Below are positions 10,734 through 35,335 of a DNA stretch of 64,000 bases, piece by piece. The notes beneath the pieces are model-generated. The model was not told the origin of the DNA, searched no databases, and worked only from the letters and a program-made list of their open reading frames with translations. The DNA comes from Sandaracinaceae bacterium (GTDB lineage Bacteria > Myxococcota_A > Polyangia > Polyangiales > Sandaracinaceae), in contig JAVJQK010000126.1 in NCBI GenBank assembly GCA_040218145.1, positions 1-64,000 of the forward strand. The letters run 5' to 3'. The number at the start of each line of letters is the position of its first letter. Position 1 is the first letter of the stretch. A program made the position numbers and the translations under genes.

Positions 10734-10835
10734 CCCGCAAGGAGTCCACCCGTCACGGTCTCGACGCGCCGCCCCCGAACGCGCGTTTCGTGCGACTCTG
10801 ATCGAGCGCGCCGCGTGCGCGCGCGGGACCGAACC

Positions 10836-12458
10836 ATGGGTGGGGAAGCGAGCGCCGACCTCGAGTCGCGATGGATCCGCGAGCAGGTGCGCGAGCGGCT
10901 CTTCGGTGAGGCCGAGCCCGTGAGCGTGGGACGGTACGCGCTGCGCGCGCCGCTGGGCCGCGGGGGCATGGCCACCGTGTACGCCGCGACGGATCCGGTC
11001 CTCGAGCGCGAGGTGGCGGTGAAGATCCTGCATCCGCGGGACGCGCACGACGCGCGGCGGCTGCTCCGCGAAGGGCGCGCGCTCGCCGCCATCGCGCACC
11101 CGAACGTGGTCGCCGTGCACGACGCGGGCGTCGACGGGGACTGCCCGTATCTCGTGATGGAGAAGGTCGAGGGGCAGACGCTCGACGCCTACCGTCGCGC
11201 GCAGCCGGACGCGCTGTGGGACGTGCTCGACGCCGTGCTCGGAGCGGGCTCCGGCCTGGCGGCGGCGCACGGCCGTGGGCTGGTGCACCGCGACGTGAAG
11301 CCGCAGAACATCCTCGTCGACGCGCGCGGCGTGGCCCGGCTCTCGGACTTCGGGTTGACCGGCGCGGAGCCCTCAGGCGCACCCTCGAGCGAGACGAGCG
11401 CGCGCCTGACGGTGACCGGCGCGCTGCTCGGGACGCCCGCCTACATGTCCCCGGAGCAGCTCGACGGACTCCCCGCCGACCCGCGCTCGGATCAGTTCGC
11501 CCTGTGCGTGACGCTCTACGAGTGCGTCTGCGGCGCGCGCCCCTTCGACGGCGAGACGCCCGCCGCCATCCGCGCCGCCATCGCGGCGGGTGCGCCCGAC
11601 GCGCCCGAAGACGCGCCGAGCTGGCTCCTGGACCTGATCGCGCGGGGCCTTCGCGAGGACCCCGAGGAGCGCTACCCGTCGGTCGACGCGCTGCTCTCCG
11701 CGATCGCGGCGCGCCGCGAGAGCGTGCGCAAGACGGAGCACGCGATGTTGTCTGTCGACAGGCTCTCGCGCGCGTTCGCGGACCGGGCCGAGGACCCCGA
11801 GCGGCTCCTCTCCCGGGTCGCCACCTGCCGAGAGGAGCTGCGCGACGCCCTCGCGGACTGGCCCGACAACCCCGAGGCGCAGGACGTCGACGCGCGCCTC
11901 GCTGCGCTCGGGGCGGCCATCGAGCGCGAGCACGATCCGACGGTGGGAGACGGCTACAAGGCCGTGTGGGGCGCGGTCATCGCCGTGCTCTGGGTGGCCG
12001 CCTACGCCGCCTTCGCGTGGGGCGACGCGAGCGGCGCGTGGCCCATCGACAACCGCGAGCTGACGGTCTTCTTCGGCGTGTTCCTCGCGCTCAACCTCTT
12101 CGTCACGTACGGCCCCGGGCGCGAGATCCATCGGGAGAACGATCCGGGCCGGAAGCTCAGCCTCATCACCACCGCCGCCTACGCGGGCGACCTGCTCGCG
12201 GCCGCCGTGGGCTGGGCGCTCGACGCCGACGTCGCCATGACGCTCGCGTCGGTGCACGTCGTCGCGGGGGCCATCTGGGGCGCGGCCGCGATCGGCGTCG
12301 ACCGTCGCGTCGCGGTGCTCTCGGTGGTCACGGCGCTGGGCGGCGCGGTCATGGCGCTGTTCCCCGCGTGGTGCTTCGAGATCGCCGCCGTCGTCGCCAC
12401 GCTGGGCATCGGCGGCTTCGCCTACGCGATGCGCCCGCGAAAGCGAGATCTGTCTTAG
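10836..12458 (+). CDS. membrane-anchored serine/threonine protein kinase
   Basis: 540 residues. The kinase domain (~33-300) has GRGGMATVYA, Lys63, HRDVKPQN (151-158), DFG (171-173) and GTPAYMSPEQL. A helical linker follows, then about five or six hydrophobic segments in the last ~150 residues. These include WGAVIAVLWVAAYAAFAW, FFGVFLALNLFVTYG and a Cys-containing AWCFEIAAVVATLGIG. The kinase is therefore cytosolic and tethered by a C-terminal membrane domain with no large external sensor. It lies 9 nt before an ECF sigma-factor gene, and kinase-plus-ECF pairs are a known bacterial arrangement in which the kinase activates the sigma factor. Confidence 0.93.
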   Translation: MGGEASADLESRWIREQVRERLFGEAEPVSVGRYALRAPLGRGGMATVYAATDPVLEREVAVKILHPRDAHDARRLLREGRALAAIAHPNVVAVHDAGVDGDCPYLVMEKVEGQTLDAYRRAQPDALWDVLDAVLGAGSGLAAAHGRGLVHRDVKPQNILVDARGVARLSDFGLTGAEPSGAPSSETSARLTVTGALLGTPAYMSPEQLDGLPADPRSDQFALCVTLYECVCGARPFDGETPAAIRAAIAAGAPDAPEDAPSWLLDLIARGLREDPEERYPSVDALLSAIAARRESVRKTEHAMLSVDRLSRAFADRAEDPERLLSRVATCREELRDALADWPDNPEAQDVDARLAALGAAIEREHDPTVGDGYKAVWGAVIAVLWVAAYAAFAWGDASGAWPIDNRELTVFFGVFLALNLFVTYGPGREIHRENDPGRKLSLITTAAYAGDLLAAAVGWALDADVAMTLASVHVVAGAIWGAAAIGVDRRVAVLSVVTALGGAVMALFPAWCFEIAAVVATLGIGGFAYAMRPRKRDLS

Positions 12459-12461
12459 AGT
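12456..12461 (+). promoter_or_regulatory. TAGAGT -10-like box inside the kinase stop region
   Basis: TAGAGT overlaps the kinase stop codon (TAG) and ends 6 nt before the GTG at 12468. The sigma-factor gene may therefore have its own leaderless promoter besides read-through from the kinase. Confidence 0.4.
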
Positions 12462-12467
12462 CCACGC

Positions 12468-13094
12468 GTGGGGGATGATGCCGAGCTCTTGCGGGCGTGG
12501 CGCGCTGGCGACGCCACCGCGGGCGCGGCCCTCTACGACCGCACGTTCCCGCTCGTGAACCGCTTCTTCCGTTGCAAGGTCGACGACGAGATCGCGGTCG
12601 ACCTCATCCAGGCCACGTTCCTCGCCGCGGTGGAGAGCCTCGAGCGCTTCCGGGGCGCGTCGAGCTTTCGCGCGTTCCTGCTCGGCATCGCGCGGCACGA
12701 GCTGCTCGACCACTACCGCAGCAAGGCGCGCGACCGCAGCGTGCCCATCGACGAGCTCACGCTCGAGGACCTCGATCCGTCGCCGAGCAGCCTGCTCCGT
12801 CACGGTCGCGAGCAGCGCGCGCTCCTGTCCGCGCTGCGCTCGCTCCCGCTCGAGCTGCAGCTCCTGGTGGAGCTCCACTACTGGGAGGGGCTCACGGGAC
12901 CCGAGCTGTCCGACGCGCTCGAGCTGCCCGAGGGCACCGTCCGCAGCCGCCTACGCCGGGCGCGCGAGCAGCTCAGATCGACGGTGGAGCGCGCGGGCGA
13001 GGCGATGCCCCGCCGCGAGCTGGCCGCGACGAGCTTCGAGTCCTGGGTGGAGAGCGTCAGGCCGTCCGACGCGGCAGGACCCCACGCTCCCTGA
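12468..13094 (+). CDS. ECF-type RNA polymerase sigma factor
   Basis: 208 residues with only sigma regions 2 and 4. Region 2 (~10-85) contains DLIQATFLAAVESLERFRGA followed by SSFRAFLLGIARHELLDHYR. Region 4 (~120-175) contains LPLELQLLVELHYWEGLTG and the helix-turn-helix LSDALELPEGTVRSRLRRA. No anti-sigma gene is adjacent; instead a membrane Ser/Thr kinase precedes it, suggesting control by phosphorylation as in STK-associated ECF groups. The ~35-residue C-terminal tail has several Ser/Thr that could be targets. The last 38 nt overlap the convergent HAD gene. Confidence 0.93.
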   Translation: MGDDAELLRAWRAGDATAGAALYDRTFPLVNRFFRCKVDDEIAVDLIQATFLAAVESLERFRGASSFRAFLLGIARHELLDHYRSKARDRSVPIDELTLEDLDPSPSSLLRHGREQRALLSALRSLPLELQLLVELHYWEGLTGPELSDALELPEGTVRSRLRRAREQLRSTVERAGEAMPRRELAATSFESWVESVRPSDAAGPHAP

Positions 13095-19990: not shown

Positions 19991-20176
19991 GCCTCGGACG
20001 CTCACGGGAGAGTCACGAGTGGGCAGCTCCCGCGGGGCGGCGTGTCCAGCCGCGTGAACACCTCGGCGAGCGAGCGCTGAAACCCCATGCATCTCGGGCG
20101 CTTGCGCGCGGCTCCGGCACGAGCTGCGGCCGATCCGAGCGGCCGTCACCCTGTGGCCGAGCGAGAGGAGGGCGCG

Positions 20177-21688
20177 ATGCGATGGATGGTGTGCTGGGGA
20201 ATGAGCGTGGCGCTCGGGGCGTGCGCGATGGGCGGCGACCGGAGAGGGACGGCCGCGGACCCGGACGGCGGCGAGGTCCGGGGACCTGGCGCGGACGCGA
20301 GCGCGGACGCCCAGTCGGAGCCGGTCGCGTCCGACGCGGGCGCCGACGCGGCGGCGGACGCGCGCGCTCCCGTCGACGCGCCCGACGGGGGCAGCGTGAC
20401 GTGCGAGCATCGCGTCTGCGGCGGGGAGTGCGTCGACCCACGTCTCGACCCTCGACACTGCGGAGACTGCGACGCGGCCTGCGGCGCGGGCGAGCTCTGC
20501 GATGAGGGGGCCTGTCACGTCGGGCCCGTGGAGGCGTGGCGCGTGGACTACGGGCTCGGGCGCCCGGCCACGCCTGGCGCGGAGCAGCTGTCGGACCTCG
20601 CGGTCGATCCGAGCGGCCGTCCGTACGTGGTCGGCCGGGGGCGCGCGCCGCGATATCTGACGCCCGACGCGGTCGCGGGAGGGTTCGTGGAGGGCCTCGA
20701 TCGCGCGGGGCGCTCGCGGCTGTTGCACGTCACGCCGATGTTCGAGGGCACCTCCGCCCTGCCCCTCGCCGTCGCGGTCGGCGCGGACGATCGCTACTAC
20801 GTCGTGGGCTCGGTCACCGGCCCGTACGTGTTCGACGCCACGCACTCGGCGCCCTCCGAGGCGCACGCCTACGTCGCGGGGTACGAGCCCGACGGAACGA
20901 TGCGGTGGCTGCAGGCATCGAGCACGACGCCCTGGCCGCAGATCGATCTTCGCGCGGGCGAGCTCTACACCGCGCTGCGCCATCAAGACCGGCCTTACGA
21001 GCTCGGCGGGGTTCGGCTGATCAGCGAGGACCACTCGGGTTACGACATCTACACGGTCGCGATGACGACCGACGGCGCGGTCCGGTGGGGCCGTGGCGGG
21101 CTCGGCAGCGGGACCGGGCTGGCCGCCGCGCCGGACCACGTGGTGCGGGCGGGCTTCGAGTCGATCGCGACCGGCGGCGGCTTCTTCACCCAGCGGCACG
21201 CGCTCGAGGTCTACGACCGAGACGGCGACCCGCTCTCTGGATACCGCGCGCTGAACGATCACGGCGGCGCGCGCAGCACGGCCGTGGCGGAGGGGGGCGG
21301 CGTCGTCTACCTGGCCGTGCTGGGCACGGACGACGCGGGCTGGGTGATCCAGCGCTACGTGGACCGCAACCTCGAGTGGGAGCGTCAGCTCGGCGCCGCG
21401 ATCGCGCTCAGCGACATCACCGTGGACGACGCGGGCCGCGTCTACGCGTCGGGCGTGGTGCGGGACGGCGTGAGCTTCGACGGGGTGAGCCGCGGCGCCG
21501 AGGACGAGGGCTTCGTCGTCGCCCTCGACGCGACGGGCGCCACCCGCTGGTCGTGGTTCCACGCCCCGCCCGCCGACTCCCTGAACACGCGAATCCGCGA
21601 GGTCGAGGTCTCCGGCGCGCTCGTCTACGTCTGGCTCGAGTATTCGCGGTACGGGGGCGCGCGCGTGCTGGCGCTCCGGCAGGGCTGA
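20177..21688 (+). CDS. lipoprotein with myxobacterial Cys-rich motif and propeller-like repeats
   Basis: 503 residues. The lipobox is LGAC. A linker rich in Asp, Ala and Gly follows. Residues ~75-113 carry a Cys-rich motif of the myxobacterial GGxCVD...CGxCdxaC type (CGGECVDPRLDPRHCGDC and following). The remaining ~390 residues hold repeated strands (DLAVDPSGRPYVVG, AVAVGADDRYYVVG, DITVDDAGRVYASG), suggesting a seven-bladed-like propeller. It is outer-surface or periplasmic, of unknown ligand. The start has a GAGAGGAGG ribosome site. No operon partner. Confidence 0.82.
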   Translation: MRWMVCWGMSVALGACAMGGDRRGTAADPDGGEVRGPGADASADAQSEPVASDAGADAAADARAPVDAPDGGSVTCEHRVCGGECVDPRLDPRHCGDCDAACGAGELCDEGACHVGPVEAWRVDYGLGRPATPGAEQLSDLAVDPSGRPYVVGRGRAPRYLTPDAVAGGFVEGLDRAGRSRLLHVTPMFEGTSALPLAVAVGADDRYYVVGSVTGPYVFDATHSAPSEAHAYVAGYEPDGTMRWLQASSTTPWPQIDLRAGELYTALRHQDRPYELGGVRLISEDHSGYDIYTVAMTTDGAVRWGRGGLGSGTGLAAAPDHVVRAGFESIATGGGFFTQRHALEVYDRDGDPLSGYRALNDHGGARSTAVAEGGGVVYLAVLGTDDAGWVIQRYVDRNLEWERQLGAAIALSDITVDDAGRVYASGVVRDGVSFDGVSRGAEDEGFVVALDATGATRWSWFHAPPADSLNTRIREVEVSGALVYVWLEYSRYGGARVLALRQG

Positions 21689-27812: not shown

Positions 27813-27934
27813 TCCGAGCCGGAGAGCGCCTTGTCGCCCTCCGCTACCTCGGGCTCCGGGGCACCGAGCTCCCGTCGGCGGTCCTCGACGGGCTCCGCGC
27901 GCGTCTGCCGCGCTGCGCGGTCGTCGCCGACTGA
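27809..27934 (+). pseudogene. leucine-rich-repeat C-terminal remnant
   Basis: A 41-codon frame from a GTG overlapping the previous stop (GTGA). The translation LRYLGLRGTELPSAVLDGLR then a terminal RLPRCAVVAD looks like the last one or two repeats of a leucine-rich-repeat protein. Its spacing (L..L.L..t.L....L..L...LP) fits repeats that end larger myxobacterial proteins. Too short to function alone; likely the surviving tail of a gene whose remainder is lost or shifted. Confidence 0.45.
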
Positions 27935-29260
27935 TCACCAAGCCGTGCGGCGCAGCAGGTAGCGGGTGCCCAGCGACACCAGCTCGTCGGCGAAGCGGGG
28001 GTCGTCGAAGAGCTCGGGGCGCACGACGATCGCGGACTCCACGCAGTGGCGGAGCGCGGCGACGATCACCCACATGAGCCGCGCGCGGTCGCCGTCCCGG
28101 ATGTCGGCGCGCGCCTCGAGCTTGGGCACGCCGAGGGCCTCGACCGCGGTCGAGACCTCGTCCTGCAGCTCCTGGACCCAGACCTGCGGGACCTCGGCGA
28201 GGAGGGCGCGGCCTGCGCGTCCGTCCGTCCGAGCGCGCTCGACGAGGCGCTCGACCAGCGCGCGGAGGAGCGCGTGGAGCTCCCCGTCGTGCGGCTCGCT
28301 CAGCGGCGTCGAGAGCAGCTCGAGGGTGACCGCCCTGCGTCGGCGCGCCAGCTCCGAGACCATCGCGCGCAGATCGGGGAAGTAGCGATAGAGCGTCGCG
28401 GGGCTCATCCCGGCCCGGCGCGCGACGGCGCGCGCGGACGCCGCGGGCCAGCCGCCCTCCGCCAGGAGCTCGAGCATGGCGCCGAGGATGGTCTCGACCG
28501 ACGCGCGCCCCCGCGTGGTGCTCGGCGCCGTGCGCACCACCGCCTCGGCCGCCTGCTGCTGCGGCTCCTCCCGCAGGCGGGCCGCCACCTCCGCGAGCGG
28601 CTCGGGCCACGGCGCGGTGCGCGACGTCTCCGGGGCGTCGAGCGAGGCGCCCTCGGGTGCGGCGTAGCGCCAGGCCAGCGCGAACAGCTCGGCGCGGAAC
28701 GCGGGGTCGTCGAGCGCCTCGGGGCGGCGGACGATCGCGTCCTCGATCGCGCCCTCGACCGCGTGGAAGACGACGAACGACATGATCTCACGCGGGCCGT
28801 CGCGGAGCGCGAGCTGGTCCATCACCTGCGCGAGCAGACGCTCGGTGCTGAGGTCGGTGGGACCGGAGGCGGGGAGCACCCAGGCGGCGGGGACCTGGAG
28901 GAGCAGCGCGCGTCGGGTCGCGAGGTTCGCGAGCCGGGGATCGAGCAGCACGTCGATCAGGCTCGCGGTGACCGCGCGCGGATCTCCGATGTCGATCGCC
29001 GCCGCGCGCTCCATCGCGGACGCGAGCGCGTTGCGCTCCAGCCGCCGCGCGAGCTCGACCACGATCGCGTGCTTGTCGGGGAAGTACTGGTAGAGCGAGC
29101 CGATGCTGACGCCGGCCACCCGCGCGATCGCGTTCGTGTTGAGCGCCTCGTAGCCGTCCCGGTCGAGGAGCAGGGCGGTCGCGTCGCAGATCGCGGTCAC
29201 GATGGCTCGCCCCTCGGATGTCGTGGGGTCGCGTCGTCGCTCGGGGATGTCGCGGCTCAC
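27935..29260 (-). CDS. transcriptional regulator with two TetR units fused in one chain
   Basis: 441 residues, about twice the usual TetR length. Unit 1: DNA-binding helices at ~17-62 (NTNAIARVAGVSIGSLYQYF) and a ligand-type domain to ~205. Unit 2: helices at ~252-298 (SARAVARRAGMSPATLYRYF) and a second core to 441. The two cores are alike: both end in an Ile-Val-x-Arg-Pro-Glu helix (AIVRRPEALDDPAFRAELFAL; AIVVRPELFDDPRFADELVSL). It probably arose by tandem duplication and fusion, making a covalent dimer. GTG start. Targets are unknown; the neighbours offer no obvious efflux or enzyme gene. Confidence 0.9.
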   Translation of the reverse strand: MSRDIPERRRDPTTSEGRAIVTAICDATALLLDRDGYEALNTNAIARVAGVSIGSLYQYFPDKHAIVVELARRLERNALASAMERAAAIDIGDPRAVTASLIDVLLDPRLANLATRRALLLQVPAAWVLPASGPTDLSTERLLAQVMDQLALRDGPREIMSFVVFHAVEGAIEDAIVRRPEALDDPAFRAELFALAWRYAAPEGASLDAPETSRTAPWPEPLAEVAARLREEPQQQAAEAVVRTAPSTTRGRASVETILGAMLELLAEGGWPAASARAVARRAGMSPATLYRYFPDLRAMVSELARRRRAVTLELLSTPLSEPHDGELHALLRALVERLVERARTDGRAGRALLAEVPQVWVQELQDEVSTAVEALGVPKLEARADIRDGDRARLMWVIVAALRHCVESAIVVRPELFDDPRFADELVSLGTRYLLRRTAW

Positions 29261-29401
29261 CCGCCCGCTTCTACCACGCCTCCTTCCCGCTCATCCCGAA
29301 CGCCCGGCTCAGCGACACGTGACGGCTCGCCGGCTCCCATGAGCGCGGAGGGCGAGACTCACCCTCGGCCGGGCCTCGCAGACACGCGCGCCGCGATCGC
29401 T

Positions 29402-31333
29402 TCAGGGACGGACGAGCCTGGACACCGGCTGATCAGGGGCGCTGACATAGACCTGTCCGGGGGCCACCATCACGACATCCGTCAGCTCCGCGTCGATGGG
29501 CGCGCCGTGGTCTGTCCACTGCGCGCCGTCGAAGTAGAAGAGCGTCGTGTGCGCCGACGCGACGTCGGTGGCGGACAGCCCGTGGATCGCGGACGCCCGG
29601 ACGAGGCCACGATCCCCCGGATCGGTGGACCACTCCACGCCGTCCCACCGCCAGACGAGGAACTGCGCGAGGAGAACGTCGCTCGGTGCGCTCGCCCACA
29701 CCGCGCTGAAGACGTTCGGGTTTCCGGGGTTGCGGGGCGGCGTGACGTCGGACCACTCCACGCCGTCGTACCGGAGCGCGACATCGGGGCTGATCGCGTA
29801 GACGTCGTTCGGCGCCGAGCCCCAGACGTCGACGAAGAAGCTTCGACCGCCGAGGCCAATTCCCGCCGGCAGCTCGACCGTCGACCATTCGCTCCCATCG
29901 AAGTGCAGGATCGTCTCGTCGCTGCCGACGGCGTAGACGTCGTCGGGGGCGCCGCCCCAGATCGCGCGGAGGTCCACCTCGACACCCGTCGACATCGGAG
30001 TGAACGTCGCCCCGTCGAACCGGAGGATCGTCCCGCCTCCGCCTGCGAAGAACGCGTCATTCGGCCCCGCGGCCCACGCGTCCACCAGGACGGTGGGGAT
30101 GGCCGGGTCCAACCGGCTCCAGCTGACGCCGTCGAACCGGGCGACGGCTCCTACGCGCGCGCCGTCGATCGTCGCCTCCCCGCAGACGTACACCTCGTCC
30201 GGCCCCGTCGCGGCGAGGCCCCAAGGGGACAGGCCCACGAGGGCGGGCTCGTCGTCGAGCACGTCCCATCCGGGCGCGACTTCGAACACGAGCGTATCGC
30301 CGAGGGCCGTGCCCTCGAGCTCGCCGCGGACCTCACAGATCCCCGGAGCCAGCGCGTCGATGCTCAGCCCACCATCTCCCGCGTGGGATCGGGTCTCCGA
30401 CGCTCCGAACGCGCAGACATCCGGCGTCAGCGTCGTGAAGACCCTCGGCAGCGTGTCGCCGCAAGCGCGCTCACCGCCGATCGTCGCGACGCCCCGAAAG
30501 GCCACGGCTGCGCCGACGCCGATGACGAAGGACGCGTCGCCGGTGCGCTCGACGACGAACCCGTCGAAGGACGTCTCGTCGTACACGTCGTAGACGCGCT
30601 CGAACGAGGGGTCGTCCGGAGAAGAGAGGCGCACCGTCGCGGGCGCCGCCGGCGTCGTCAGCGTGATCCGCGACGGGTCCTCGTCGACCGCCTCGAGGAC
30701 GGCGCCTTCGGCGACGAGCGGGATGTAGCCGTAGCCGAACCGTGAGAGCTCGGTGTCCCCCGCGAACACGCGCATCCCCACCGAGAGCGTCGTCTCCGAA
30801 GCGATGTATCTCGGCGTCTCCGTCGTCGTGGTGTCGCCGCAGCCGACGCTCGCGTCGACCCTCGTCACCCGGCGCGCCGAGTACGTCGCCTCCACGACGT
30901 GGCGCTCGCCGTCCTCGGTCTGAAGCGTCACGCGCAAGAGGCCGTCCCCTTCGCGCAGCGCCTCGACGGTGAAGACGTTGGGGCTCGCCTCGGAGCGTGT
31001 GAGCTCGAACGGCGTGTCGCCCACCCAGGTCGTCTCCGCGACCGTGAACGGGATGGCTTCGCAGCCGGGGATGAGCGCCTCGGGCACCGCGGCCAACACG
31101 TCGATGCGGCCGAACGCGGACACGATGCCCGCCGCGATGAGCACGCCCGCGACGTCGGTCAGCTCGAGCTCCTGGTTGCACGCGCCGACGACCAGGTCGT
31201 GGCGCGCCCCGACCGCGATCGTGGCCTCTTCGGGGAACACGAACGTCTTCCGGTCCCCGCCGAAGAGCGCACAGCCCGACAGCTGCAGCGCGATCAGCAG
31301 GATGACGAGGCTGGTCTCGTGCGACGCACCCAT
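29402..31333 (-). CDS. large lipoprotein with C-terminal beta-propeller
   Basis: 643 residues. The signal sequence ends in LQLSGC, so it is lipidated. Residues ~30-370 form an Ig-like beta-rich region with a few Cys. From ~385 on there are repeats of about 45-50 residues with the myxobacterial hallmark WGxAPxDVYA/V (AAGPNDAFFAGGG, IWGGAPDDVYAVGSD, VWGSAPNDVYAIS, VWASAPSDVLLAQ), making a propeller. FDGxxWS strands alternate. Surface binding or sensing is possible; no catalytic motif. The start has a GGAGAGGAG ribosome site. Confidence 0.85.
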   Translation of the reverse strand: MGASHETSLVILLIALQLSGCALFGGDRKTFVFPEEATIAVGARHDLVVGACNQELELTDVAGVLIAAGIVSAFGRIDVLAAVPEALIPGCEAIPFTVAETTWVGDTPFELTRSEASPNVFTVEALREGDGLLRVTLQTEDGERHVVEATYSARRVTRVDASVGCGDTTTTETPRYIASETTLSVGMRVFAGDTELSRFGYGYIPLVAEGAVLEAVDEDPSRITLTTPAAPATVRLSSPDDPSFERVYDVYDETSFDGFVVERTGDASFVIGVGAAVAFRGVATIGGERACGDTLPRVFTTLTPDVCAFGASETRSHAGDGGLSIDALAPGICEVRGELEGTALGDTLVFEVAPGWDVLDDEPALVGLSPWGLAATGPDEVYVCGEATIDGARVGAVARFDGVSWSRLDPAIPTVLVDAWAAGPNDAFFAGGGGTILRFDGATFTPMSTGVEVDLRAIWGGAPDDVYAVGSDETILHFDGSEWSTVELPAGIGLGGRSFFVDVWGSAPNDVYAISPDVALRYDGVEWSDVTPPRNPGNPNVFSAVWASAPSDVLLAQFLVWRWDGVEWSTDPGDRGLVRASAIHGLSATDVASAHTTLFYFDGAQWTDHGAPIDAELTDVVMVAPGQVYVSAPDQPVSRLVRP

Positions 31334-31554: not shown

Positions 31555-32493
31555 TCACGGCAGCGTCGAGAGGAAGCCCCAGAACGCGGGGGCGGCGAAC
31601 GCATCCTGACGGGAGTGCCCCATGCCCGCGGTCTCGCACCACACCACGGGCTCGGCGCAGTCCGTGTACGCGACGCACGGCGCGGGATCGGTCGGCGCCG
31701 TGTCGGCGGCGCAGCCGTTCCGATCCACGTGCGCGTCGCGGGCGCCCTCGCTCGCGCGGATGCGCACCGTGCCGTCGTTCTGGTCGTGGATCAGCAGCGC
31801 GCCCACGATCCCGGAGCAGTCTCGGCCAGCTTGGCCGCCGCCGATGGTGGCCACGCCGCGCAGGACGTCGCCGCGCACGCAGGCGAGCTGATGCGACATG
31901 AAGGCGCCGCTCGAGTAGCCGGTGGCGAAGCGTCGGTCCGGATCGGCACAGAAGCGCGACTCGACGGCGCCGACCATCGCGTCGAAGAAGGCGACGTCCG
32001 GGCCGGCCGCGCCGGTGACCCAGCAGCGGTCGACCGCGCGGCCGCGCACGTGGATGGCGTCCTGTCCGCTCTCGCGCTCCACGGGCACGTTGTTGCGCTC
32101 GCGCTCGGCGCGGTCCGAGCAGCCGTGGAACTGGTAGACGACCGGGTAGGCGCGAGCGGGGTCATAGCCCTCCGGGAGCCAGACGAACCAGTCTCGGGTC
32201 ACGCCGCCCACGTCGAGCGTCTGCGCGACCCACTCTCCCTCCGCGATGTCGGCGGCCCGGCCGCAGCCCTCGCTCGGCGCGCCCGCGTCCGGCGCGCCGC
32301 CGTCCTCGGCCGCCGCGTCGGTCGCGCCCCCGTCAGTCGCGCCTCCGTCGATGGAGGTCTCGCCGTCGGTCGCGGCGCTCGCGTCGCGCGCCACGGAGGC
32401 GTCCGGACCGACGTCTGCGTCGCAGCCCGCGAGGAGCGTGAGGGCGAGGAGGAGCGACCCGAGGCGTTGCGTCTGCACGCCACACTGTCTCAC
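31555..32493 (-). CDS. polyhydroxybutyrate depolymerase-like esterase lipoprotein
   Basis: 312 residues, alpha/beta-hydrolase fold of the LpqC/PHB-depolymerase-like group. The lipobox is LLAGC (Cys24), then an Asp/Ala/Gly-rich linker to ~75. YPVVYQFHGCSD is the strand with the oxyanion HG. The nucleophile is Ser194 in TGYSSGAF, the acid is probably Asp237 or Asp240 in IHDQNDGTV, and the histidine is His293 in GMGHSRQD. Six or more Cys suggest disulphides and external location. It may hydrolyse a polymer ester (PHB, xylan acyl groups); the substrate is not determined. Start GTG at 32493 or 32478. Confidence 0.85.
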   Translation of the reverse strand: MRQCGVQTQRLGSLLLALTLLAGCDADVGPDASVARDASAATDGETSIDGGATDGGATDAAAEDGGAPDAGAPSEGCGRAADIAEGEWVAQTLDVGGVTRDWFVWLPEGYDPARAYPVVYQFHGCSDRAERERNNVPVERESGQDAIHVRGRAVDRCWVTGAAGPDVAFFDAMVGAVESRFCADPDRRFATGYSSGAFMSHQLACVRGDVLRGVATIGGGQAGRDCSGIVGALLIHDQNDGTVRIRASEGARDAHVDRNGCAADTAPTDPAPCVAYTDCAEPVVWCETAGMGHSRQDAFAAPAFWGFLSTLP

Positions 32494-32536
32494 GACCCGG
32501 CGCGCCGAGGCGAGAAGCGCACCCCGAAGGCCGACG

Positions 32537-33154
32537 TCAGGCGTCGCCCGCGAACCGGCGACAGACGAAGAGGAGCGCCGCGAGCGCGTTCGGGTCGGTC
32601 TCCGCGCCGGGACGCACCGCGTGGATGTGCGCGCCGCCGGAGTAGAGCTGGTAGTGGCCGCGCAGCGCGCTCAGCGCGTCGAGGACCTGGGTGTCGAAGA
32701 GCGGGAAGAGCGCGTCGGGCCGCGCCCCCTCGAGCGGGCGGATCGTCCACGCGGCGTCGAACCCCGGGTGACCCGTCAGCGCTCCGCCGCCGTGGCGGCC
32801 GGAGAGGAGCTCGAAGGGCGGCACGGGTCGCTTGACCGGCACCACGACGTAGGTCTTCCAGTCGTTCGACGTGTCGATCGGCCGAACGCGGTGCTCGATG
32901 TTTCGATCCGTGCCGACGATGTTGGTGGCAAGGAGCAGCGCGTCGCCGACCTTGAAGCGGGGCGTGCCGAGCGGCCCCCCGCGGTCGAGCAGATGTCCGC
33001 CGAGCCGCTGGACGACGCCGGCCCAGCCCTGCTGCGCGGTGGAGACCGCGCTGGCCTTGCCCACCACCGACAGGACCAGCAGGGCGCCGAAGCCGATCAC
33101 CATCAGGACGACCAAGCCGGCCGCGGCGAAGAAGACGAGATCGCGTGGTTGCAT
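32537..33154 (-). CDS. membrane-anchored hypothetical protein
   Basis: 205 residues with one N-terminal membrane segment (FFAAAGLVVLMVIGFGALLVLSVVG), then a soluble domain with a beta-rich middle (KTYVVVPVKRPVPPFELLSG; TGHPGFDAAWTIRPLEG) and a helical end (DPNALAALLFVCRRFAG). It shows no known motif. The domain could face either side of the membrane. The ATG at 33154 has GGAGG 9 nt upstream. It is divergent from the TPR protein gene; the shared 139-bp region probably holds both promoters. Confidence 0.78.
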   Translation of the reverse strand: MQPRDLVFFAAAGLVVLMVIGFGALLVLSVVGKASAVSTAQQGWAGVVQRLGGHLLDRGGPLGTPRFKVGDALLLATNIVGTDRNIEHRVRPIDTSNDWKTYVVVPVKRPVPPFELLSGRHGGGALTGHPGFDAAWTIRPLEGARPDALFPLFDTQVLDALSALRGHYQLYSGGAHIHAVRPGAETDPNALAALLFVCRRFAGDA

Positions 33155-33293
33155 CGGAAGAACCTCCGGGCACTGATACGAGAGCGCGACGGTCGGTTCC
33201 CTCGGATGGCGCGAACTGCGCCTTCTCTGGCGCGAACGGGGCGTGGCGGGACGGGGTTGTGGTCGCGGCACCGGCTCGTCCATGATGCGAGCC

Positions 33294-34028
33294 ATGCAAA
33301 GGTGGGGGGGCACGACCGTATTGCTGGCGGTCTGGATGGCGGTCGGGACCGCGAGCGCGCAGGACGCGGAGCCGAGCCGGGACGCGGAGGCGCGCAGCGT
33401 CTTCGAGGCGGGCACGCTGGCGTTCGAGGACGCTCGGTACGCGGACGCGCTCGGGTACTTCCAGCGCGCGTACGAGCTGAGCCAACGGGCCGTGCTGCTC
33501 TACAACATCGGCGTCGCGGCGGATCGGCTGCGTCGAGACGCGGTCGCGCTCGAGGCCTTCGAGCAGTTCCTGGAGTCGGTCCCGGACCACCCCCGGCGCC
33601 GCGACGTCCTGGCGCGGGTGGAGGTGCTGCGCGAAGCGGTCGCGCAGGGAGAGAGCAGCGAGCCGCCACCCGCCCAGGCCGTGGCTGCCGACGTCGACGT
33701 GGGGACGGCGCCGCCCGCCGCCACGAGCGGGCCCGACGTGGGGTCCCTCGTCGGCGCGAGCGCGCTCGGCGCGGTCGGCGTCGCGAGCCTCATCGTGGGC
33801 GTGGTCGGGATCGCGGGCGCGGGGGAGTGTCTCGAGCGGGCCGGAGACGTGTGCGTCGAGGAGCGTGGCACCGCGTGGGAGGCCACCGGGCTCTACCTCG
33901 GGCTCGGGGCCGCGGCGATCACGGCCGCCGTGATCTGGATCGTGGTCGCGGCCTCCCAGGGAAGCTCGGAGCAGGCCGCGCGCGCGCTCCGCGTCGGGCC
34001 GGGGGGAGAGCTGACGTGGACGTTCTGA
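33294..34028 (+). CDS. secreted TPR protein with C-terminal membrane segments
   Basis: About 244 residues. Signal peptide MQRWGGTTVLLAVWMAVGTASAQ; TPR helices at ~30-105 (GTLAFEDARYADALGYFQRAYELSQRAVLLYNIGVAADRLRRDAVALEAFEQFLESVPDHP pattern). An Ala/Pro linker follows, then two hydrophobic segments (VGVASLIVGVVGIAGA; GLGAAAITAAVIWIVV). The tail ends ELTWTF, like the terminal strand of other TPR/PEGA proteins here. In-frame ATGs at 33282 and 33285 exist, but a CATGAT box 7 nt before 33294 favours the latter. The next gene overlaps by 13 nt. Confidence 0.8.
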   Translation: MQRWGGTTVLLAVWMAVGTASAQDAEPSRDAEARSVFEAGTLAFEDARYADALGYFQRAYELSQRAVLLYNIGVAADRLRRDAVALEAFEQFLESVPDHPRRRDVLARVEVLREAVAQGESSEPPPAQAVAADVDVGTAPPAATSGPDVGSLVGASALGAVGVASLIVGVVGIAGAGECLERAGDVCVEERGTAWEATGLYLGLGAAAITAAVIWIVVAASQGSSEQAARALRVGPGGELTWTF

Positions 34029-35335
34029 GCCGCACCCTCTGCGCCACGTTGTTCGCCCTCGCGGCGTCCGGCTGCGTCTTCTCCGACCGCTGCGTCAACG
34101 GCGCCGCGCGCGACGAGGCGAGCGGACGATGCACGCTCACCGTCGACCCGGACGCTGGAGAGAGCGACGCCGGCTCCGGGGCCGACGCCGGGGACGCGAG
34201 CACCGACGACGACGCTGGCGTCCCGCGCCGCATCGCGCAGGTGAGCGTGGGCGTCGTGCACGCGTGCGCCATCGATGACCTGGGCGTGCTGCGCTGCTGG
34301 GGTGACAACTCGTCCGGCGCGCTGGCGACCGGCGACACCGCGGCGTCGTCCGTGCCGCAGGTGGTCGACCTCGGCGCGGCGGTCACCCAGGTGGGCGGCA
34401 CCGCGCTGCACACCTGCGCGACCACGAGCGCGCCCGCGACGTTCTGCTGGGGACAGAACGCGGAGGGGCAGATCGGCGACGGCACGCCGGGCGACATCCC
34501 CACGACCACGCCGTTCGAGATCACGGGACTGGGCGCGCTCCAGCAGATCATGGGCGGGTTCGCGAACACGTGCGCCGTGTCCTTGCTCGGCCAGGCGGTC
34601 TGCTGGGGGCGCAACGACCGCAACCAGCTCGGGAACCGACACATCGAGATGACGCAGCCCGTGCCCGGCGCGCCCATGGTCGAGCCGGACGGCTCGGAGC
34701 TCGAGGGGGCGCGGCAGGTCGCCATCGCCGATCGCCACATCTGCCTCCGCGTCGACGGCCGCGCGTACTGCGTGGGCGACGGAGGCGAGGGCTCCCTCGG
34801 CGACGACACGCGGCTCGACCGTCCGGAGCCGGTGCCCGTGTCGACCTTGACGGACGTCACCGACGTCGCCGCGAGCTTCGCCCACTCCTGCGCCGTGGCG
34901 GGCGGGGAGGTCTTCTGCTGGGGTGACGGGACGCAGGGCCAGGTCGTGCCCGAGATGACGGACAGCTACGCGGGCCCGCAGCTCGTGGTCTTCCCCATCG
35001 CGGCGCGCGAGGTGGTGACGGGTGAGAAGCACTCCTGCGCGCTCCTCGAGGACGGCACCGTACATTGCTGGGGGACGGACGATGACGGGGCGCTCGGAGA
35101 CGCCGCGTCGCACACCGGCCCCACCGCGCCGGTCCAGGTCGAGGGCCTCTCGGGCGTCACCGCGCTCGAGGCCAACTTCGTCGGCGTGACCTGCGCGCTC
35201 ACCGGAGCGGGCGAGCTCTTCTGCTGGGGCCAGGACTCGATCGAGCTGCTCGGCGGTCCGCGGCCTGGCGGGACGAGCATCTTCCTCGACGGCATGACCC
35301 GCCACGACACGCCGGTGCGCGTCGACCCGCTCTGA
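34016..35335 (+). CDS. RCC1-repeat lipoprotein
   Basis: 439 residues. The GTG start overlaps the upstream gene by 13 nt, with a GGGGGGAGAG ribosome site. Lipobox LAASGC; linker rich in Asp/Ala/Gly to ~75. Then about six or seven RCC1-type repeats of about 50 residues with the pattern CA...DG...CWGxN..GQ/ALG (CAIDDLGVLRCWGDNSSGAL; CAVSLLGQAVCWGRNDRNQLG; CALLEDGTVHCWGTDDDGALG), forming a seven-bladed propeller. Paired Cys in each blade suggest disulphides outside the cytosol. RCC1-like lipoproteins are frequent in myxobacteria; the ligand is unknown. Confidence 0.9.
   Translation: MDVLSRTLCATLFALAASGCVFSDRCVNGAARDEASGRCTLTVDPDAGESDAGSGADAGDASTDDDAGVPRRIAQVSVGVVHACAIDDLGVLRCWGDNSSGALATGDTAASSVPQVVDLGAAVTQVGGTALHTCATTSAPATFCWGQNAEGQIGDGTPGDIPTTTPFEITGLGALQQIMGGFANTCAVSLLGQAVCWGRNDRNQLGNRHIEMTQPVPGAPMVEPDGSELEGARQVAIADRHICLRVDGRAYCVGDGGEGSLGDDTRLDRPEPVPVSTLTDVTDVAASFAHSCAVAGGEVFCWGDGTQGQVVPEMTDSYAGPQLVVFPIAAREVVTGEKHSCALLEDGTVHCWGTDDDGALGDAASHTGPTAPVQVEGLSGVTALEANFVGVTCALTGAGELFCWGQDSIELLGGPRPGGTSIFLDGMTRHDTPVRVDPL

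What the first reader, a model, noticed from the sequence alone, without database searches (positions are those of the whole stretch)
27935..29260. Two TetR repressors fused into a single chain
Both halves have a complete DNA-binding helix pair and a similar ligand core, and share the terminal RPE..DDP.F..EL motif. TetR proteins normally work as dimers of one-domain chains; a covalent tandem could bind asymmetric operators or two ligands.
Basis: partly seen in the sequence, partly recalled or inferred. Interest (0 to 1): 0.5.

Follow-up and report, generated by a model that had tools for sequence, protein, structure and literature searches.

The report
Two gene switches fused in one
This myxobacterial gene really does encode two complete TetR-type repressors in one chain, which probably pack against each other like the usual two-chain repressor; it is an uncommon design, but one already known from the tuberculosis bacterium's Mce3R protein.

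Summary
Window 27935-29260 (minus strand) is one uninterrupted 441-residue frame with two complete TetR copies (36% identical over 192 residues) and a linker of about 37 residues. It is no artefact: a near-identical copy exists in another genome of the species, and a 62%-identical tandem, gapless in the linker, in another family of the order. Both copies are under purifying selection; the linker is not. It is the only two-TetR frame among the 50 TetR frames listed for this genome. AlphaFold models of both orthologues (pTM 0.89, 0.88) match the solved Mycobacterium tuberculosis Mce3R across both copies. Mce3R is a known 'double TFR' that folds as a one-chain pseudo-dimer on a non-palindromic operator. 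The likeliest mechanism is the same: the halves form the TetR dimer inside one chain, with two different DNA-reading heads. The second half differs at six positions that are 89-100% conserved in single-domain relatives, and so probably reads another half-site. No operator, ligand or target was identified. It is a new, perhaps independently arisen, member of a known kind.

The parts
27935..29260 (-). Tandem (double) TetR repressor gene, 441 aa, GTG start, TGA stop
   Evidence: ORF; two PF00440 matches; orthologues L049 and L011
28646..29260 (-). First TetR copy, residues 1-205
   Evidence: Halves alignment; model helices 15-200
29051..29191 (-). First DNA-binding domain (TetR_N), residues 24-70
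   Evidence: PF00440, 47.7 bits
28664..28726 (-). First copy of the RPE..DDP.F..EL motif, residues 179-199, in the last helices (expected dimer bundle)
   Evidence: Sequence; helices 180-184 and 186-200; conservation in single-domain relatives
28535..28645 (-). Linker, residues 206-242; no gap but 31% identical in L011 (counted over 206-240)
   Evidence: dN 0.88, dS 0.57 over 35 codons; low confidence in the model
27938..28534 (-). Second TetR copy, residues 243-441
   Evidence: Halves alignment; model helices 249-435
28352..28489 (-). Second DNA-binding domain (TetR_N), with altered residues in and next to the helix-turn-helix
   Evidence: PF00440, 47.1 bits; residue comparison
27959..28021 (-). 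Second copy of the RPE..DDP.F..EL motif, residues 414-434
   Evidence: Sequence; helices 415-419 and 421-435
29261..29401 (.). Upstream intergenic region, where an autoregulatory operator would be expected; it holds a 19-bp imperfect palindrome at 29348-29366 that is not better than chance
   Evidence: 124 of 500 dinucleotide shuffles as good

Best explanation
A double TetR-family repressor. The two TetR copies of one chain pack against each other through their last two helices and form within one polypeptide the four-helix-bundle 'dimer' that ordinary TetR proteins make from two chains. Each copy places its helix-turn-helix in a neighbouring major groove. Because the two reading helices differ, the chain should recognise a non-palindromic operator. 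A small molecule bound in the core is expected to release the DNA. Shown here: the fusion, its conservation, selection on both halves, and the divergence of the second reading head. Computed only: the one-chain pseudo-dimer fold. Inferred from TetR biology and Mce3R: repression, the asymmetric operator and ligand release. Targets and ligand are unknown.
For: One open frame with two PF00440 domains. The tandem is kept in L049/L009 (99%) and in L011, another family of the order (62%), with no gap in the linker. NG86 dN/dS is about 0.30 for the N copy (residues 14-202), 0.56 for the C copy (245-441) and 1.5 for the linker (the YN00 method failed in that call). AlphaFold2: pLDDT 88.0, pTM 0.89 for the window protein; 87.7 and 0.88 for L011. 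The best PDB match of both models is Mce3R 9b7y_A across both copies: window model Foldseek TM 0.58/0.65, VIA Z 22.8, rmsd 5.5, 358 aligned, model 14-438; L011 model TM 0.49/0.55, Z 21.9, rmsd 5.8, 349 aligned, 12-433. The second-ranked entry has Z 15.1 and 15.5 and covers one copy. Second-head differences T42>A276, N43>R277, G54>A288, S55>T289, Q58>R292 and K63>L297 are the same in L011.
Against: No operator was found: the upstream regions of the two orthologues share no motif above chance, and there is no promoter-like match in 27900-29450. The 19.9-kb stretch around L011 shares no neighbouring gene with the window, so no conserved target supports a regulatory role. The Foldseek rmsd values to Mce3R are large (11.7 and 12.7) and TM for L011 only 0.49-0.55, so the relative placement of the halves agrees with Mce3R only roughly; I saw no coordinates and no error matrix. 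In G025 an 18-bp perfect-arm palindrome lies just upstream of the gene (16 of 500 shuffles as good at the best of three arm lengths), which would fit a symmetric site. The window and L049 genes differ by four bases, two of them amino-acid changes, both in the second half.
Confidence: 0.66

Rival explanations
1. Two chains pair copy by copy: N with N and C with C, giving two symmetric repressor heads in one complex that bridge two palindromic operators and may sense two ligands.
For: The linker of about 37 residues is long and of low confidence in both models, so geometry may not forbid it. Both upstream regions contain 18-19 bp inverted repeats, the G025 one uncommon in shuffles (16 of 500 at the best of three arm lengths). 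This was the alternative considered for Mce3R (passages of PMC11667970).
Against: Both single-chain models give confident whole-chain folds whose best PDB match is Mce3R, and the solved Mce3R uses the intramolecular arrangement. The window palindrome is not better than chance (124 of 500).
Confidence: 0.15
2. Only the first copy reads DNA; the second is a covalent partner that completes the dimer or senses the ligand and has lost specific DNA reading.
For: The second copy departs from 10 of 33 positions at least 75% conserved in single-domain relatives, against 3 for the first, and its HTH is less conserved between the orthologues: 42/62 identical against 50/62.
Against: The second head still passes the TetR_N cut-off, keeps most scaffold residues, and the six listed changes are the same in both orthologues rather than drifting. 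Many ordinary TetR proteins carry TLYRYF-type reading helices (recalled).
Confidence: 0.15
3. The fusion is not real in the cell: two proteins are made from an internal start, or an assembly error joined two genes.
For: GTG codons occur in the window's linker at residues 225, 241 and 242, and an ATG at 262.
Against: The same gapless tandem occurs in a different genus; in the stretch examined L011 has a single in-frame start-type codon, a GTG inside the first helix of the second copy. No stop separates the halves in any of the three genomes.
Confidence: 0.03

Closest known systems
Mce3R of Mycobacterium tuberculosis (double TFR, PDB 9b7y)
   Same: Two complete TetR copies in one chain of about 400 residues; best structural match of both models across both copies.
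   Different: 17-18% identity in the structural alignments. The weak sequence matches are crossed: Mce3R's first copy matches our second and its second copy our first. Different phylum; no Mce or YrbE domain among the 12 window and 7 L072 flanking ORFs scanned with Pfam. Our two halves match the same set of single-domain relatives, whereas Mce3R's halves are described as belonging to distinct subgroups (passage).
Single-domain TetR relatives in Myxococcota (e.g. loci L029, L013, L014, L010 of G422, G107, G123, G005)
   Same: These four are 36-44% identical to the first copy; the wider set shares the reading helix SxGSLYQYF and the C-terminal motif.
   Different: One copy per chain; presumably classical homodimers (not tested).
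EthR and FadR type TetR repressors (1u9n, 5gpa) and other single-domain TetR structures (3bni, 2oer)
   Same: Fold of each copy; best single-domain sequence matches 3bni and 2oer.
   Different: Single-domain chains; the sequence matches cover the HTH and at most the start of the core.

Membership tests
TetR family (PF00440) | TetR_N helix-turn-helix above the Pfam cut-off | tested here: met
   Twice: 47.7 and 47.1 bits against a cut-off of 24
TetR family (PF00440) | All-helical C-terminal core ending in a helix pair | tested here: met
   Predicted in both copies; single-domain TetR structures match one copy with Z up to 15.5. That the helix pair forms the dimer is recalled
Double TFR (Mce3R kind) | Two complete TetR copies fused in one polypeptide | tested here: met
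Double TFR (Mce3R kind) | The two copies form the TetR dimer within one chain | tested here: inconclusive
   Supported by prediction only: pTM 0.89 and 0.88, Mce3R best match across both copies; no coordinates were inspected and no experiment was seen
Double TFR (Mce3R kind) | Binds a non-palindromic operator with two non-identical HTHs | not testable with these tools
   HTHs are non-identical; operator not identified
Mce3R orthologue group | Common descent of the fusion with Mce3R | tested here: inconclusive
   Crossed, weak sequence matches (19.6 and 21.4 bits) suggest an independent fusion but do not prove it; Mce3R was not in the tree

The most novel reading that the evidence does not exclude
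A double TetR repressor that arose in Myxococcota independently of the actinobacterial ones, by duplication inside a single TetR subfamily, and whose second reading head then diverged: a natural single-chain 'heterodimer' evolved from a homodimer, reading an asymmetric operator.
Probability: 0.4. Interest if true: 0.38.

Novelty: new member of a known kind. Interest (0 to 1): 0.27.

Why it matters
The double TetR repressors cited in the paper I saw are from actinomycetes, with one solved example (PMC11667970). A probably independent case in Myxococcota, with orthologues in two genera and single-domain relatives still present, would let one ask how a symmetric homodimer becomes a one-chain asymmetric repressor, and whether the intramolecular arrangement is the general solution. 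Beyond that the finding is ordinary: a transcription factor of a known kind with unknown target.

Tried and rejected
Internal start or missed stop: rejected. Internal duplication against fusion of two relatives: a 63-row tree (4 tandem halves and 59 others) puts the two N copies together (100/99) and the two C copies together (100/100) but does not resolve whether N and C are sisters; the free tree does not join them, and holding all four as one clade costs 16.5 log units yet is not rejected (p-AU 0.226). Rows dropped before that tree: copies of the window gene or of L011 (L001, L009, L049, L072), five weak or partial ones (L003, L005, L064, L065, L066) and the repeat copies of the G107 pair. 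L004, L006, L007 and L008 gave no row at the BLAST threshold.

Operator: 300-base upstream regions of window and L011 share nothing above shuffled sequence (scores 21 and 22; 300 shuffles, mean 21.7, maximum 34). Palindromes: best arm length gave 124 of 500 (window, 9 bases) and 16 of 500 (G025, 8 bases) dinucleotide shuffles as good; the other arm lengths gave 470 and 296 (window) and 49 and 77 (G025). No promoter-like or terminator-like match.

Regulated neighbours: between the window and L072 only the gene itself and antisense frames of it match. Pfam on 12 window ORFs gave TPR, RCC1, STIG1-like and weak esterase-like and DUF2510 matches or nothing; on 7 L072 ORFs glycoside hydrolase 3, a WD40 protein, a GFA enzyme, an MscS channel, a PRC barrel and weak others. 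Nothing common.

Plasmids: 100 records match, none over 80% of the query. A TetR_N count over 10 genomes of the family was cut in the listing, so I made no count of two-domain frames from it. Literature: searches for tandem TetR proteins gave, in the rows listed, only PMC11667970 as relevant by title; search 10 for Mce3R listed 20 of 47 papers. The TetR-family review cited there is not held.

The 37 single-domain relatives used are 37 of the 59 non-tandem rows of the tree, and most were found through the first copy, so the agreement of the first copy with them is partly by construction.

Full report
What is there. Window 27935-29260, minus strand, is one uninterrupted reading frame of 441 codons with a GTG start. 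Pfam's TetR_N model matches it twice (47.7 and 47.1 bits, cut-off 24). The two halves align over 192 columns, residues 9-199 against 243-434, with a score of 271, while 1000 shuffles of the second half reached at most 66. Identity is 36%, 29/62 in the DNA-binding part and 41/133 in the core, so both the DNA-binding domains and the ligand cores are homologous.

It is a true fusion. Another genome of the same species (G006; its contig has the length of the record of L049, titled Sandaracinaceae bacterium MED-G138) carries the same gene with four base differences, two synonymous and two amino-acid changes in the second half. A genome of another family in the same order (G025) has a 438-residue tandem, L011, 62% identical. 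Between the two, the first copy is 71% and the second 57% identical, and the linker is 31% identical but has no gap. Nei-Gojobori dN and dS are 0.21 and 0.71 (first copy), 0.36 and 0.64 (second copy), 0.88 and 0.57 (linker, 35 codons); the YN00 estimate failed. Both copies are thus kept as protein, while the linker seems kept for length only. In-frame start codons of the window in this stretch (GTG 225, 241, 242; ATG 262) have no counterpart in L011, whose only one lies within the first helix of the second copy.

How common. In this genome the scan lists 51 TetR_N matches (150 of 246 first-look candidates scored), which by my reading of the table fall in 50 frames; only this frame has two. The full-length tandem was found in 3 of 183 genomes of the order, 2 of 377 sampled across the phylum and 3 of 317 of the class with a profile; these sets overlap and the finds are always among G000, G006 and G025. 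In those calls only 4 to 9 candidates per genome were scored, so a diverged tandem could have been missed. The scan of genomes of 84,980 species by exact peptide patterns gave 23 loci, of which only the same-species one was full length at high identity; it did not return the G025 kind, so its silence says little. The other matches are to one copy, mostly the first (31-44% identity to it).

Origin. On a tree of 63 copies the two first halves pair, and the two second halves pair, so the fusion predates the split of the two lineages or was passed between them once. Whether first and second halves are each other's closest relatives is unresolved; the best tree does not join them, but forcing this is not rejected (p-AU 0.226).

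Fold. AlphaFold2 gave pLDDT 88.0 (five models 77.7-88.0) and pTM 0.89 for the window protein (40 sequences) and 87.7 and 0.88 for L011 (20 sequences). A pTM this high over the whole chain implies a confident placement of the two copies relative to each other, although I saw no coordinates or error matrix. The best match in the PDB is in both cases Mce3R, 9b7y, across both copies: TM 0.58/0.65 and VIA Z 22.8, rmsd 5.5, 358 residues for the window model; TM 0.49/0.55 and Z 21.9, rmsd 5.8, 349 residues for L011. The second-ranked entries have Z 15.1 and 15.5 and cover one copy. The agreement of the relative placement with Mce3R is approximate (Foldseek rmsd 11.7 and 12.7).

What Mce3R shows. From the abstract, passages and sections 15 and 25 of PMC11667970: Mce3R is a double TFR; [quoted passage not shown] it binds 25-bp asymmetric sites; the one-chain units pair further into a homodimer; and the paper cites 204 predicted double TFRs in actinomycetes. 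So the kind is known. Passages of PMC3511530 and PMC4482099 mention Mce3R, the latter its complex, not classically palindromic motif.

Two different heads. At 33 positions at least 75% conserved in 37 single-domain relatives, the first copy agrees at 30 and the second at 23. Six of the second copy's differences lie in or next to the helix-turn-helix (T42>A276, N43>R277, G54>A288, S55>T289, Q58>R292, K63>L297; 89-100% conserved in the relatives) and are identical in L011, while most structural residues are kept. That such positions touch DNA is recalled from TetR structures, not computed here. The single-domain set was found mainly through the first copy, which favours it in this count. The simplest reading is a second head with its own half-site preference and hence a non-palindromic operator; loss of reading by the second head is a rival.

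What is missing. No operator: the two upstream regions share nothing above chance, the window palindrome at 29348-29366 is not significant, and an 18-bp palindrome upstream of L011 is only suggestive. No shared neighbour in the stretch compared, hence no target; flanking ORFs are TPR, RCC1 and lipoprotein-like proteins and unknowns. No ligand.

Membership and novelty. It meets the definition of a double TFR (two complete copies in one chain). The intramolecular dimer is predicted, not shown. It is probably not an orthologue of Mce3R: the weak sequence matches are crossed, Mce3R's first copy with our second and vice versa. I rate it a new member of a known kind, perhaps an independent origin.

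Noticed in passing
L013 / L027 (G107:C241, 1490-2107 + and 2926-3549 -): Two single-domain TetR genes of the same subfamily, 36-38% identical to the first copy, lie tail to tail about 0.8 kb apart: possibly an unfused counterpart of the tandem.
   Followed up: no
L072 10721-10872: In G025 the tandem gene is divergent from a WD40-repeat, lipoprotein-like ORF (10794-13004 +), with an 18-bp perfect-arm palindrome (ACCGGCCG-GG-CGGCCGGT) about 25 bases upstream of the regulator's ATG.
   Followed up: partly
window 29402-31333 (-): The gene just upstream of the tandem is a 643-residue lipoprotein-like protein with repeated units around 'F.G..GTILRFDG' (propeller-like by eye); Pfam gives only a weak match below its cut-off.
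   Followed up: no
window 32246-35335 (+): The second part of this frame carries RCC1-type repeats (PF00415, five stretches).
   Followed up: no
window 20087-21688 (+): A match just above the cut-off to the plant STIG1-like family (PF04885) in a myxobacterial ORF.
   Followed up: no
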